A stretch of DNA of 64,000 bases from Providencia sp. (GTDB taxonomy: Bacteria; Pseudomonadota; Gammaproteobacteria; Enterobacterales; Enterobacteriaceae), in the NCBI RefSeq assembly GCF_003533305.1, contig NZ_DOEH01000015.1, positions 1-64,000 on the forward strand, read 5' to 3'. A program made the position numbers and the translations under genes. Numbering within the stretch: the first letter of the stretch is position 1; each line of letters starts with the position of its first letter. Shown here in pieces: positions 7,900 to 47,316 of the stretch. A model generated the notes under the pieces. That model had not been told where the DNA came from, searched no databases, and worked only from the letters and a program-made list of their open reading frames with translations.

Positions 7900-9273
7900 T
7901 TAAGGTAAGTCAATAATAAAACCAATACCTTTATTTTCTATTCCATCAGATACTCGAATAACAGCCCCAATTTTACCCGCTAAGTTTTGTGCGATTGATA
8001 AACCTAATCCGCTACCTATTTCTGTCGTACCGGGAACACGATAGAAACGAGAAAAAATATGCTGACGATTATCGAGAGGAATACCGCGGCCATTATCTTG
8101 AACACTAATAATCGCACCAAAGGGTGAAAGATCTTTTAGTGTTATTTTTATTTTTGCATTCTCATGATTATATTTAATGGCATTTTCGAGTAAATTAGTG
8201 AAGATATTAGTTAGTGCGAGTTTATCTGAAACAATATAAAAAGAATCAGGGCTTTGTAACTCAACATCAATATTTTTATTGATGGCATGAGGGATATGAG
8301 AAGAAATGATATGGCTGATTAGCATCGGAAGGTCAATTTGTTCCGTGTGTAAGGGAAAGTCCTCTGCCTCTAAGCGTGCTAAATCTATGAGCTGATGTGA
8401 TAACGATGCAGCTCGATTAAGCGTTTGTTGCATATCATCAATGATTTCTTCTTTTTCTTTGGGATTATTAATTTGTATGAGTAAGTGCAATTGAGCAATC
8501 ACTGCCGCAATCGGGGTGCGTAATTCATGAGCCGCATCAGCCATAAAGCGTTTTTCTCGTTGATTAGTTGCATTCACTCTAGCCATTAAATTATTAATGG
8601 CTTCGATAATTGGGCGTATTTCTTTATATTGTTCTTTGATTTCAATAGGCGTTAAGTTACCAGGTTGGCGAGTCGAAATTATTCTTGCAGATTGTCGCAA
8701 TGGTTGCGAGCTAAAGTAAGCTGCGAACAGTATCGCGATAAGCATTCCGCCTAAAACCAGGGCTAGTGGGATCGCCGTTCCCCCAGCAGGACTACCTAAT
8801 AGTGTGGTACGTTCAGCTTGTGACTCTGCAATTAAAACCTCAAATGTATTTGCTTCATTCCACGCTGAGGTAAAATGCCAATCTTTATGTAAGTCTGTTA
8901 ATTCTTCTATAGTTTTTAGCGAAGGAACCTTTAATTTTTCACTATTTCGATATAAAACATTTCCTAGTTTATCTCTAACAACAACGAAGGGGCGATAACT
9001 AATACCTTCTTCACTTTCTATTGCATCGGTATACATTTTTTGCAGGGAATCTGCTACTTCATTGAAATATTTTGGGTTATCTGAAACGACCCCAAGGGTT
9101 CTAGCAAAACCTTGAGTGATTACTTGTTGTTGTTTATTGAATTCATTATATATGGACGGCCAGTAGGAATACTGAAGCCAAATAAGGAGTAATATCCATA
9201 GAAAAAGGACAGAGCAAATTTGTAAACCAAAGGTGTAAATAAAAAGAGATTTAATTTTCACTAGGCTGCGCAT
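7900..9273 (-). CDS. Sensor histidine kinase, QseC/PmrB-like
   Basis: A 457-residue membrane sensor. A first membrane segment lies at about residues 12-34, a periplasmic domain of about 130 residues follows, and a second membrane segment lies near 168-188. A HAMP-like linker leads to a HisKA domain with phospho-acceptor His249 in ADAAHELRTP. The ATPase domain has the N box (NLLENAIKYN), G1 (DNGRGIP) and G2 (GSGLGLSI). It overlaps the regulator gene by 23 bases, so the two are co-translated. The family senses envelope or chemical stress, but the periplasmic domain is not one I can match to a ligand. QseC and PmrB are the nearest named relatives. Confidence 0.88.
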   Translation of the reverse strand: MRSLVKIKSLFIYTFGLQICSVLFLWILLLIWLQYSYWPSIYNEFNKQQQVITQGFARTLGVVSDNPKYFNEVADSLQKMYTDAIESEEGISYRPFVVVRDKLGNVLYRNSEKLKVPSLKTIEELTDLHKDWHFTSAWNEANTFEVLIAESQAERTTLLGSPAGGTAIPLALVLGGMLIAILFAAYFSSQPLRQSARIISTRQPGNLTPIEIKEQYKEIRPIIEAINNLMARVNATNQREKRFMADAAHELRTPIAAVIAQLHLLIQINNPKEKEEIIDDMQQTLNRAASLSHQLIDLARLEAEDFPLHTEQIDLPMLISHIISSHIPHAINKNIDVELQSPDSFYIVSDKLALTNIFTNLLENAIKYNHENAKIKITLKDLSPFGAIISVQDNGRGIPLDNRQHIFSRFYRVPGTTEIGSGLGLSIAQNLAGKIGAVIRVSDGIENKGIGFIIDLP

Positions 9274-9928
9274 CTTTTTTTAATAAGTAACCTATGCCAC
9301 GTATAGTAATTATTCTGTCTTTACCAATTTTGCGGCGTAAATTATGAATGTGTACTTCAAGAGAATTGCTCTCTATTTTATCATCTAGACCAAACAGGCG
9401 TTGCTCTAAATCAGCTTTACGGACAACATTATCTGCATTTTTAATTAACTCAAAAAGTAGTAAATATTCTTTACCTGATAATAATAAAAGCTGTTCATTT
9501 AGTGTGACCTGATGATTAATAGGATTTAACTGTAGGTTATCTAGTTGCCATATTTCAGAGGAAAAACCGGCGATGCGACGACTGACAGCTTTGACTCTTG
9601 AAATAAGCTCAGGCATGGCAAAAGGCTTAGTGAGAAAATCATCTGCACCAGAATCGAGGCTTGAGACAAGGTTGTCCATTTGATTACGTGCAGTTAAAAT
9701 AATGATAGGGATCGCTTCACCTGCATGCCGCCAAGCCACTAATTCATCATGACCATCGCCATCAGGTAAGCCCAAGTCTAATAACATTAAATCAAAATTA
9801 CGGTTTTTTAATTGAAGTTTTGCATCTGTAAGCAAACGAACCCAACATGGATTAAAACCGGCTAATTCAAGTCCTCGACACAACGCTTTCCCTAATTGGA
9901 GATCGTCTTCGACTAATAGGATATTCAT
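9251..9928 (-). CDS. OmpR-family response regulator, QseB/PmrA-like
   Basis: 225 residues. The receiver domain has the acidic pair near residues 8-9, phospho-acceptor Asp51 in LLLDLGLPDGDG, Thr79 in ILTAR and Lys101. The C-terminal winged helix ends NSLEVHIHNLRRKIGKDRIITIRGIGYLL, the pattern of PmrA and QseB. It is the first gene of the two-component operon and faces away from the small membrane protein and mipA-like genes. A PmrA/QseB-like direct repeat lies in the shared intergenic region, so self-regulation and control of the divergent genes are likely. Confidence 0.9.
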   Translation of the reverse strand: MNILLVEDDLQLGKALCRGLELAGFNPCWVRLLTDAKLQLKNRNFDLMLLDLGLPDGDGHDELVAWRHAGEAIPIIILTARNQMDNLVSSLDSGADDFLTKPFAMPELISRVKAVSRRIAGFSSEIWQLDNLQLNPINHQVTLNEQLLLLSGKEYLLLFELIKNADNVVRKADLEQRLFGLDDKIESNSLEVHIHNLRRKIGKDRIITIRGIGYLLKKDAQPSEN

Positions 9929-10003: not shown

Positions 10004-10020
10004 TTTAAGTATTTCTTAAT
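10004..10020 (+). promoter_or_regulatory. PmrA/QseB-like direct-repeat operator
   Basis: TTTAAG-TATTT-CTTAAT fits the PmrA/QseB pattern (C/T)TTAA(G/T)-N5-(C/T)TTAA(G/T). It sits between the response-regulator gene (start 9928) and the divergent small-protein/mipA pair (start 10102), the place expected for a binding site of this regulator. Confidence 0.55.
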
Positions 10021-10101
10021 ATTGGGTTAACCATTTATTAAGGTACAAAAAATTAATCAGATTACTATCCTCGTATATCTCTAAAAATAAGAGCATTGGC
10101 G

Positions 10102-10344
10102 ATGAAATACACTTTCATAGAAGTGCCTATATACGCAATTGTTATTTTTATTGCTCTGATGTTTATAGGAAAAAATTTTAGTAAAACTCACCACACCAAT
10201 TTTTATAATGTGAAGGTAAGTGAAGTTAGAACTTGCATTGGAATAGATAAATGCATTCCAAATGTTCACATATCTTTAGATAGAAAAAACACATTCAGTC
10301 CAATAAAGAAAATTAAAGTTTTTATTAGGCAAAAAATTTATTAA
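10102..10344 (+). CDS. Small single-span membrane protein, unknown function
   Basis: 80 residues from ATG (an in-frame TTG lies at 10096). Residues 5-24 form one hydrophobic segment (FIEVPIYAIVIFIALMFIG). A polar, Lys-rich tail of about 55 residues follows, with two cysteines (CIGIDKC). The likely layout is an inner-membrane anchor with a periplasmic tail. I do not recognise a family. It lies 32 bases upstream of the mipA-like gene in the same direction with no terminator between, so co-transcription is probable. A weak GAG ribosome-binding site lies about ten bases upstream. It may belong to the envelope module of the neighbouring two-component system. Confidence 0.5.
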   Translation: MKYTFIEVPIYAIVIFIALMFIGKNFSKTHHTNFYNVKVSEVRTCIGIDKCIPNVHISLDRKNTFSPIKKIKVFIRQKIY

Positions 10345-10375
10345 TAAAAAGAGCGTAAACTTTAACATGAGCGAA

Positions 10376-11175
10376 ATGAAACGCGTATTCACATTAGTGC
10401 TTTGTGCCTTTGTGCATTGCCGTGTAGCTATACTGTGGCTAATGAAAATATATTTATTATTGGCACGGGTATGAATATTGCCCCTGTTTATGAAGGCTCT
10501 AAAAAGTATCAAGTTGAGCCAAGTCTTGAAGCGAGTTATGCATATGCAACTGATAATTACGGTGTTTTTAGTTTAAGCGTAGATGGTGCTGCATGGGCTG
10601 TTGGGCTCACTGATAATTTTACATTTGCGACCTCTGTTGGCTATGATGATGGTCGTGATGAAGATATAGGCGTTTTAGGTCATAAAAATAAAGACTTAAA
10701 AGGTATGGGGAAATTAGACGGTTCTGTTCTTGTTGGATTTGATCTCTATTATACATTGAGTGATTATCAATTATACATAATGACAGATATTGCCACTAAA
10801 GATCGCAAATATGGTGGGCGTCAGATAGGTAGAGCTGTTACTGTTGAATTAGGCGCAAATACGCAATATGAGATTAATCAAGATTGGAACATAGAATATA
10901 ATCTAGCTACAGTTTGGGGAAATAAAGCCCACAATCAAGCCTATTTTGGTGTTTCTAAACAACAAGCGAGTAAATCAAAGTTTGCAGAATATGATGCGGG
11001 AAGTAGCTTTAAAGATGTGCATGGTTCAGCAATTTTAAACTATAAAGTAGATAAAAACCTTTCTTTATATTCAGGTATAGGGGCTTACTATTTAGTGGGG
11101 GATGCCAGTAAAAGTACGCTTACTGAGCAACGTTCAGGTTTTGTTGGTTTAGCGGGAATTAGATACACGTTTTAG
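10376..11175 (+). pseudogene. MipA/OmpV-family outer-membrane protein, signal peptide out of frame
   Basis: From about 10402 the frame encodes a 240-250-residue beta-barrel of the MipA/OmpV family. It has the N-terminal motif MNIAPVYEGSKKYQVEPS, alternating strands and a C-terminal aromatic GIRYTF. No proper start precedes it in frame. A signal-peptide start (ATG AAA CGC GTA..., 10376) lies in another frame. Between them is an exact 8-bp tandem duplication, CTTTGTGC twice (10400-10415). With one copy removed the reading becomes MKRVFTLVLCALPCSYTVA followed by NENIF, a normal signal peptide and cleavage site. As written the gene is off, or at best translated from TTG without an export signal. 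MipA relatives bind MltA or act as envelope-stress porins. Confidence 0.8.
10400..10415. repeat. Exact 8-bp tandem duplication in the mipA-like signal sequence
   Basis: Two adjacent copies of CTTTGTGC. Loss of one copy restores the reading frame between the signal peptide and the mature protein. It could be a slipped-strand event in this isolate or a reversible switch. Confidence 0.9.
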
Positions 11176-45043: not shown

Positions 45044-45107
45044 AAATATTTATATATTAAACTTAAATCTTTAGGGTTTTTTACTTCTAATTTATAACTG
45101 CCCAACC

Positions 45108-45147
45108 CTTCAATCCTTCAACCCTTCAATCCTTCAATCCTTCAAAT
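45108..45147. repeat. 8-bp simple tandem repeat, CTTCAAYC about five units
   Basis: Successive units CTTCAATC, CTTCAACC, CTTCAATC, CTTCAATC and CTTCAAAT occupy 40 bases, 132 bases upstream of the DUF4034 start codon. No palindromy or spacers, so not a CRISPR array. Confidence 0.85.
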
Positions 45148-45279: not shown

Positions 45280-47316
45280 ATGTCATCTGCAATCAGCTCT
45301 ATAGAGTCATACATCGAAAAACGTAACTATTTGCGTTCATTACTGGCTTCCCATCAATTTGAACAGCTTGATCTATTGCTGAATAATATGCAGCAGCAAT
45401 GGCTAGAAAAATCATCTGAACCATTTGATTATGAATGGTTTATTAGTGATTTACTTGACCCAACAAAGATTGCGGCTGATATACTTTCTCATTTAGATAC
45501 TTGGATCAAAAGTAATCCAACGTCCTATCATGGGTATTTACTTCAGGGTTGTTATTGGGAAGCTGCAGCGGCACGTATTCGAACCTCTAATGGGGGAGAA
45601 TATGTAAGTGATGACCGCTGGATTGGAGCTCAACTTGCTCGAGATTTAGGGTTAGTATCCTATTTGCGCGCAATATCATTACATGAGCGTCCTGCTTATG
45701 CATTGCGCCGAATGATGCGCTTAACTGCTTATCTCGGAGAACCACAATGGCTATACGACTTAGCTTATGGTCGTGAGCCATATACTTATGTGCAATTGCA
45801 AAATGATATTGACCCCGAAATATGGCGTGCTGGTTTGCGTCGTTTACTCGATGAAGGTGGCGACTTAGCGTTTATTCCTCAAGAGTTACCTAGTAACCTT
45901 CCTGTTCGTGAAACAGATGAAGTTAAAACATATTGGTTGAATGCGACTTTAGCTATTCGCTCTCAAGATGTTGGCATTCGCAATGAGTACCTTTACTTCC
46001 TTTACCCGCGCTGGGGTGGTAGCCATGAACAAATGGCAGAGTTTATCGAAGGGGCTGTATGTGAAACATTGAGTGAGCAAGAGCGTAATATTTTGTGGAT
46101 CACTAAAGCTTGGGATTTCCTTGGTTATTCTATCTATTTTCCCGAACAAGAAGACCATGATGAAATTGAATATTGTTGTGATGCATTTGAACAGTTATTA
46201 GCGTTGGATTTAGCCGAGGAACAGCGTGCTCGTGTACTGTATCAATATGCCAATTTCCGTGCACATTACGGAAAACAAGATGGCGTTTGGCAAGTAGAAA
46301 AAATGCAGCTTTGTTATGAACTATTAGTAAAAGCATGGCAAATAAGTCCAGCCATGGCTAACCCTCAAATGGGATTAGATACATTGATGAGCTGCATTAA
46401 TTTCGCGCATATTAATGATAGTTATAATTTATTACCTCAATGGTTGGAGCGATTACAGCTGTTGGGTGATGATAAATATGCTGTCATTCTGGCCGCAGTA
46501 GCCAGTAAGTTTGGACTATATGGTATTTCGAAGGGACAATTCGATCATCAGGCACTAATGGCTCAAGCTAAATTTTTAGATGCGGAAGATCTTGATGTGG
46601 GGCAAGCCGCCGCTAATTTATTTGGCTCTCAATCTGAAGACGCGGCAATTTACCTATTGCAGCAAGCCTGTGAATGGGGCGATATTTCAGCAATGGCAAC
46701 GTTATCAGACGTATATGCAGGGGTATTATCACGTCAGAACGATCGTGATATCAATACCTATAAAGATAATGCGTTGCGAACGTATTGGATGGAACGCGCT
46801 GCAAACGGTGGTGATGCGACTAGCCAATATAATTTAGCTTATGGGATTCTTGAAGATAATGAAGAGTTGAGTCCAGAGCAGTATCAGCAAACGAAAAAAT
46901 TATTACTCAATGCAATGAATACATCCAATGTACGGCGAGATGTTTGGGAACGTTCAGCACATAGGCTCGCGACCTTATTGATATTTGGTGATATTCAAGA
47001 TGATATGCTGTTGTGTCTTGATACCGTATTACCCGCTTTATGGAATGATGAAAGTGTGGAAAACCAAGTGTTTGCTGCCGGCTATTATGCTTTGGCGTTT
47101 CATTTGGGCGCTGGGTGTACCCGAAATAGCTATTTGGCTAAAGTTTGGTTAGAGCGCGGATTGGAATTAGCACCAGAAGATAGTTATTTGGCTGACCGAG
47201 CAGCAGAGATATTCCGACATAAAGAACTGCTGGGTGGGACACGTGCCAAAATGGGTTTTAGTAAAGATCAAAAGTTAATGGATCAACATGGATATAATTT
47301 AACTTTTGGTGAGTAA
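45280..47316 (+). CDS. DUF4034-domain protein with TPR/Sel1-like repeats
   Basis: 678 residues, no signal peptide. The DUF4034 region (residues about 1-290) includes FLYPRWGGSHEQMAEF, the PRWGGS motif being typical of that domain. The C-terminal half is built of helical pairs such as AAIYLLQQACEWGDISAMATLSDVY and RTYWMERAANGGDATSQYNLAYGIL, which look like Sel1/TPR repeats used for protein contacts. Function unknown. It stands alone. An AAGGAA lies about 13 bases before the ATG, so translation initiation looks weak. An 8-bp tandem repeat lies in its upstream region. Confidence 0.75.
   Translation: MSSAISSIESYIEKRNYLRSLLASHQFEQLDLLLNNMQQQWLEKSSEPFDYEWFISDLLDPTKIAADILSHLDTWIKSNPTSYHGYLLQGCYWEAAAARIRTSNGGEYVSDDRWIGAQLARDLGLVSYLRAISLHERPAYALRRMMRLTAYLGEPQWLYDLAYGREPYTYVQLQNDIDPEIWRAGLRRLLDEGGDLAFIPQELPSNLPVRETDEVKTYWLNATLAIRSQDVGIRNEYLYFLYPRWGGSHEQMAEFIEGAVCETLSEQERNILWITKAWDFLGYSIYFPEQEDHDEIEYCCDAFEQLLALDLAEEQRARVLYQYANFRAHYGKQDGVWQVEKMQLCYELLVKAWQISPAMANPQMGLDTLMSCINFAHINDSYNLLPQWLERLQLLGDDKYAVILAAVASKFGLYGISKGQFDHQALMAQAKFLDAEDLDVGQAAANLFGSQSEDAAIYLLQQACEWGDISAMATLSDVYAGVLSRQNDRDINTYKDNALRTYWMERAANGGDATSQYNLAYGILEDNEELSPEQYQQTKKLLLNAMNTSNVRRDVWERSAHRLATLLIFGDIQDDMLLCLDTVLPALWNDESVENQVFAAGYYALAFHLGAGCTRNSYLAKVWLERGLELAPEDSYLADRAAEIFRHKELLGGTRAKMGFSKDQKLMDQHGYNLTFGE

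What the first reader, a model, noticed from the sequence alone, without database searches (positions are those of the whole stretch)
10376..10470. Exact 8-bp tandem duplication breaks the MipA signal peptide; one copy restores it
CTTTGTGC occurs twice in a row at 10400-10415. With one copy, the ATG at 10376 reads straight through a textbook signal peptide (MKRVFTLVLCALPCSYTVA) into the MipA barrel. With two copies the frame is lost. The rest of the gene is intact, so the change is recent or reversible. MipA-type outer-membrane proteins are surface-exposed, a class in which repeat-slippage switching is known in other bacteria.
Basis: seen in the sequence. Interest (0 to 1): 0.75.

Follow-up and report, generated by a model that had tools for sequence, protein, structure and literature searches.

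The report
Eight-base duplication breaks MipA-family gene
In this Providencia genome an exact 8-base repeat throws the gene for a predicted outer-membrane protein out of frame, so the protein is likely not exported; 15 of 22 Providencia genomes examined lack this gene beside the same neighbours, a few with remnants of it, so this is likely gene loss in progress rather than a built-in on/off switch.

Summary
CTTTGTGC occurs twice in tandem at 10400-10415; the frame from the ATGs at 10367 and 10376 ends at TGA 10472-10474, while the MipA frame (PF06629, E 1.2e-32) stays open to 11175. P0001, a 266-aa database protein differing from the window protein at four residues past the repeat, has an unbroken signal-peptide region, so intact alleles exist, probably in the same species.

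Dedicated switching is not supported. The tandem has two copies, occurs once in the genome, is absent from the related loci held, and exact 8-bp tandems are expected about once per 64 kb. Reads and isolate sets were not available.

Context gives a better reading. In 22 of 22 Providencia genomes holding the neighbouring response-regulator gene, a divergent ORF of about 80 codons is present; mipA is there in seven (six intact, this one broken). Three of the other 15 hold stretches resembling mipA beyond all 100 shuffles. mipA is likely the dispensable member of this module, and the window likely shows an early step of loss. The module resembles ParRS-MipBA, a proposed polymyxin co-sensor of Pseudomonas aeruginosa, but lacks MipB. 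Reversion by slippage is possible and untested.

The parts
10400..10415 (+). Two exact tandem copies of CTTTGTGC; they put the signal-peptide region and the MipA barrel in different frames
   Evidence: the period-8 run is exactly 16 bp, with no further homology at its edges
10367..10474 (+). Broken upstream frame: ATG 10367 (or ATG 10376) to TGA 10472-10474, 35 or 32 codons before the stop
10366..11175 (+). MipA-family frame, open throughout; TTG 10402 is its first common start, and in-frame ATG 10471 overlaps the TGA of the broken frame (ATGA)
   Evidence: PF06629 E 1.2e-32
10102..10344 (+). 80-aa ORF with one hydrophobic N-terminal stretch (by eye), likely co-transcribed with mipA; no Pfam or NCBIfam match at E 0.001; a relative lies beside the response-regulator gene in 22 of 22 Providencia genomes that hold it
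9251..9928 (-). OmpR-type response regulator, nearest to PmrA and QseB models but below both curated cut-offs
7900..9273 (-). Sensor histidine kinase, nearest to the QseC model and below its cut-off
10004..10031 (.). TTAA-type hexamers at 11-bp spacing (TTTAAG 10004, CTTAAT 10015, GTTAAC 10026) between the divergent genes; the pattern is in all 22 loci examined; predicted response-regulator site (likeness to PmrA/QseB boxes is recalled, not tested)

Best explanation
An exact 8-bp tandem repeat puts the signal-peptide region of this mipA-family gene out of frame with the rest and is predicted to leave the predicted outer-membrane barrel unmade or unexported; it is likely a recent loss-of-function allele of a gene that 15 of 22 Providencia genomes examined lack at this place. 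The repeat probably arose by replication slippage around the GTGC motifs at 10397, 10404 and 10412 (inferred). Ribosomes starting at 10367 or 10376 would stop at 10474. Restart at the overlapping ATG 10471 would give a product without the signal peptide and beginning inside the first predicted strand; the TTG 10402 start would give 13 residues without K or R before the mature part (both inferred). In the window the neighbouring two-component genes and the 80-aa ORF are open. By analogy with Pseudomonas ParRS-MipBA the protein was probably an outer-membrane input to that system, so its loss would blunt sensing rather than remove the response machinery (inferred). Because the repeat is an exact tandem, reversion is possible in principle but is not shown.
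For: Repeat and frame break. Intact near-identical protein P0001. Six intact orthologs. Constraint on the window copy within the range of its relatives. Patchy presence: the response-regulator gene is in 22 of 24 Providencia genomes, the small ORF beside it in 22 of 22, mipA beside it in 7 of 22 including this broken one. Remnant-like stretches beat all 100 shuffles in G008, G023 and, more weakly, G005; for G012 1 of 100 shuffles reached the score. The 15 mipA-less genomes form three supported clades in the tree of the two-component genes. P0015 (177 aa, 2 members) starts in the wrong frame and runs into MipA sequence, as a second frameshifted copy would (for the searches, 38, 47). Model of P0001: first strand 25-37, residues 1-22 below pLDDT 50.
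Against: No reads were available, so a mixed population or an assembly error is not excluded. Remnant signals lie in only one of the three mipA-less clades; 11 of 15 mipA-less loci gave none (10 to 100 of 100 shuffles reached the score), and by unweighted parsimony the intact state needs two changes, so gains are not excluded there. G005 and G011 carry a relative of about 40% identity elsewhere in the genome. The dN/dS test is weak: dS to the nearest relatives is 1.7 or more, so a short relaxed period would not show. The genome keeps a second PF06629 gene. That the protein is not made or exported, and its link to the two-component system, are inferred.
Confidence: 0.72

Rival explanations
1. 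Contingency switch: the 8-bp tandem gains and loses a copy by slipped-strand mispairing often enough to toggle MipA on and off in populations.
For: Exact tandem, frame otherwise open, intact allele known. Precedent: a 7-bp duplication in Listeria prfA whose loss was seen after passage in mice, read as passages of a review.
Against: Two copies only; no third length seen; the tandem is absent from 52 of 58 loci held, the other six all covering this same site; many genomes lack the gene, some with remnants; exact 8-bp tandems are expected by chance.
Confidence: 0.12
2. Assembly or sequencing error: the second copy is not in the strain.
For: One assembly of 33 contigs and no reads available.
Against: An exact 8-bp tandem outside a homopolymer is not a typical short-read error (recalled); the genome is rated 99.99% complete with 0.07% contamination.
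Confidence: 0.08
3. The two-copy form is still expressed, from the TTG at 10402, by restart at ATG 10471 or by ribosomal frameshifting, so the gene works.
For: The frame is open from 10366, TTG 10402 is in frame, and ATG 10471 overlaps the stop as ATGA; dN/dS shows no relaxation.
Against: Both products lack a credible signal peptide, judged by eye; orthologs start upstream with a basic residue and a long hydrophobic stretch; restart would begin inside strand 25-37.
Confidence: 0.06
4. The repeat is an 8-bp target-site duplication left by excision of an insertion sequence.
For: Exact direct repeat with no further homology at its edges; several IS families make 8-bp duplications (recalled).
Against: Excision that leaves both copies and nothing else is rare in bacteria (recalled). 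The IS content of the genome was not examined.
Confidence: 0.02

Closest known systems
7-bp duplication in prfA of Listeria monocytogenes (Lindback et al. 2011, seen only as described in passages of the review PMC8874635)
   Same: A short duplication breaks the frame of an otherwise intact gene.
   Different: There, loss of the repeat was observed and further isolates with it were reported; here no reversion or second length has been seen.
Pseudomonas aeruginosa ParRS-MipBA polymyxin co-sensor (PMC10936184)
   Same: MipA-family barrel beside a two-component system; the paper says that in most loci screened a TCS lies next to mipA, and that only a 117-nt residual mipA frame remains in PA14 and PAO1.
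   Different: MipB (a lipoprotein with beta-lactamase fold) is missing; an 80-aa membrane-type ORF without a family match sits there; polymyxin binding is untested here.
MipA/OmpV family proteins (PF06629)
   Same: Family match over the whole profile, predicted barrel.
   Different: Distinct from the genome's other, higher-scoring PF06629 gene at C7:260849-261517.

Membership tests
MipA/OmpV family (PF06629), by homology | Match over the curated cut-off across the profile | tested here: met
   114.3 bits against 24.2, profile 1-221 of 221
Working MipA/OmpV outer-membrane protein | N-terminal signal peptide in frame with the barrel | tested here: not met
   Out of frame in the window; in frame in P0001 and the six orthologs
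Repeat-slippage contingency locus | Exact tandem repeat whose copy number changes the frame | tested here: met
   8-bp unit, two copies
Repeat-slippage contingency locus | Multi-copy tract kept in relatives | tested here: not met
   Two copies; tandem only in the 6 of 58 loci that cover this same site; no period-8 tandem in the first 110 nt of six orthologs
Repeat-slippage contingency locus | Both lengths in one population, or frequent reversion | not testable with these tools
   No reads or isolate sets
ParRS-MipBA type polymyxin co-sensor | Two-component genes adjacent to mipA | tested here: met
   Response regulator beside mipA in the window and six further genomes
ParRS-MipBA type polymyxin co-sensor | MipB lipoprotein with beta-lactamase fold in the operon | tested here: not met
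   Only an 80-aa ORF without Pfam or NCBIfam match lies between the response regulator and mipA
ParRS-MipBA type polymyxin co-sensor | Polymyxin binding and signalling to the kinase | not testable with these tools
   Needs bench work
Recent pseudogene | Frame break, intact close relative | tested here: met
Recent pseudogene | Selective constraint not yet visibly relaxed | tested here: inconclusive
   dN/dS 0.08-0.15 against six orthologs, but dS is 1.7 or more

The most novel reading that the evidence does not exclude
An outer-membrane input to a two-component envelope-stress system is toggled by a reversible 8-bp tandem duplication in its signal peptide, so that clonal Providencia populations hold sensing and non-sensing cells.
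Probability: 0.08. Interest if true: 0.65.

Novelty: new member of a known kind. Interest (0 to 1): 0.33.

Why it matters
The break itself is an ordinary kind of mutation. The useful part is the pattern around it: in 22 of 22 genomes the response-regulator gene has the small membrane-type ORF beside it, while the MipA barrel is there in only seven. That makes it testable whether MipA-type barrels are optional inputs to such sensors, and what the unnamed 80-aa ORF does.

Tried and rejected
Structure at the repeat: single-strand DNA folding of 10370-10450 gave z -1.13, nothing special. CTTTGTGC is not over-represented in the window (2 found, 2.62 expected). The response regulator as the PmrA ortholog: another gene of the genome scores higher with the PmrA model (237.6 against 205.3 bits) and neither reaches the cut-off of 330. 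Small ORF outside the genus: 2 of 149 family genomes matched, and these two were the only ones of this genus in the draw; the protein database gave two hits. The fold search of the P0001 model gave general outer-membrane barrels, TM-score by query length at most 0.53 in the 50 rows shown. Paper searches: no listed title or abstract start reported a broken mipA in Providencia; this is not a full literature check.

Papers: PMC10936184 abstract, passages and Discussion. PMC8874635, PMC6819657 and PMC9426598 passages only. PMC12016157 and PMC8487129 in the listing only. Lindback 2011 is not held and is cited through the review.

Full report
What is there. The window lies in a Providencia genome: the genome search places it in one genus with a genome (G013) whose contig has the same length (428137) as a named P. 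vermicola contig. At 10400-10415 CTTTGTGC stands twice in tandem, once in the whole assembly. The frame from ATG 10367/10376 ends at TGA 10472-10474, while the frame open from 10366 to 11175 encodes a MipA-family protein. Exact period-8 tandems are not rare: 3 in the window, mean 1.07 in 60 simulated sequences.

Relatives. A protein search returned 19 proteins. The best, P0001, is 266 aa, 98% identical, and stands for 14 member sequences. Over the 257 shared positions it differs at residue 11, inside the repeat, and at residues 35, 58, 68 and 85; it has an unbroken N-terminus. How many of the 14 members share that N-terminus is not shown, and its DNA was not seen. The six orthologs beside the same response regulator are open from a start in the same place. 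P0015 (177 aa, 2 members) begins with 11 residues that G001 encodes in the wrong frame and then runs into MipA sequence; it may be a second frameshifted copy or an assembly error.

Consequence. The AlphaFold model of P0001 (mean pLDDT 79.4) has its first strand at 25-37 and residues 1-22 below 50. A product from TTG 10402 would carry 13 residues without K or R before the mature part; one from ATG 10471 would start inside the first strand. Loss of export is predicted, not shown. Pairwise dN/dS of the window copy against six orthologs is 0.08-0.15; between the intact copies it is 0.04-0.17 in 9 of 15 pairs, the other 6 being saturated. This shows long-standing constraint and fits a recent break, but dS is too high to date it; the near-identity to P0001 is the better sign.

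Neighbourhood. Divergent from mipA lie a response regulator and a histidine kinase, closest to the PmrA/QseB and QseC models but below their cut-offs. Between the regulator and mipA is an 80-aa ORF without a family match. The regulator was found in 22 of 24 genus genomes at E up to 1e-80; the two without it (G019, G020) had no mipA match either. In G004 it carries an early stop, and in G006 one near its end. The small ORF was beside it in 22 of 22, 79-89 aa long. Its dN/dS among the seven mipA-bearing genomes is 0.07-0.42 in 18 of 21 pairs, three being saturated, as for a coding gene under weaker constraint. TTAA-type hexamers at 11-bp spacing precede it in 22 of 22. mipA is beside it in 7 of 22, the window included. 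G005 and G011, counted as lacking it, have a relative of about 40% identity elsewhere.

Loss. Of the 15 loci without mipA, three (G008, G023 and, more weakly and with many gaps, G005) hold stretches that align to mipA better than any of 100 resampled controls. For G012 one of 100 reached the score. The other 11 gave no signal (10 to 100 of 100). In a tree of 22 rows of the two-component genes the mipA-less genomes form three supported clades, with intact copies on both sides of the midpoint root. For that tree G012 was labelled a remnant by eye and G005 absent, before the control was run; both lie in one clade. The window row is a long branch of uncertain place. A losses-only reading gives three losses plus the window; unweighted parsimony needs two changes for the intact state and would allow gains. 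Remnants speak for loss in one clade only.

Known systems. In P. aeruginosa MipA and MipB are proposed co-sensors of polymyxins for ParRS; a TCS lies next to mipA in most loci screened there, and PA14 and PAO1 keep only a residual mipA frame (PMC10936184). A MipA/OmpV gene is in the BesRS regulon of Burkholderia thailandensis (PMC9426598 passages). Here MipB is absent. A 7-bp duplication in Listeria prfA is the nearest precedent seen for a reversible short tandem break (PMC8874635 passages).

Verdict. Real and correctly described; most likely an ordinary recent loss-of-function allele of a gene that is patchy in its genus. The switch reading stays open at low probability.

Noticed in passing
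window 10102-10344: An 80-aa ORF, whose relatives mostly share a C-terminus like FIRQKIY, stands beside the response-regulator gene in 22 of 22 Providencia genomes, with no Pfam or NCBIfam match; a candidate unnamed partner of the two-component system.
   Followed up: partly
L037 (G004) and L036 (G006), response-regulator gene: The regulator gene of G004 has an early stop before its C-terminal part, and that of G006 one close to its end, so the module may be decaying there too.
   Followed up: partly
L051 (G003), small ORF: The small ORF of G003 is 89 aa and carries an in-frame tandem duplication of about 10 residues in its hydrophobic stretch.
   Followed up: no
window 45103-45145: Tandem array of CCTTCAAT/CCTTCAAC-like units upstream of the DUF4034 gene at 45280.
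   Followed up: no
G000:C7:260849-261517 (L031): A second, higher-scoring PF06629 gene in the same genome (178.8 bits), so a MipA-family protein may remain.
   Followed up: partly
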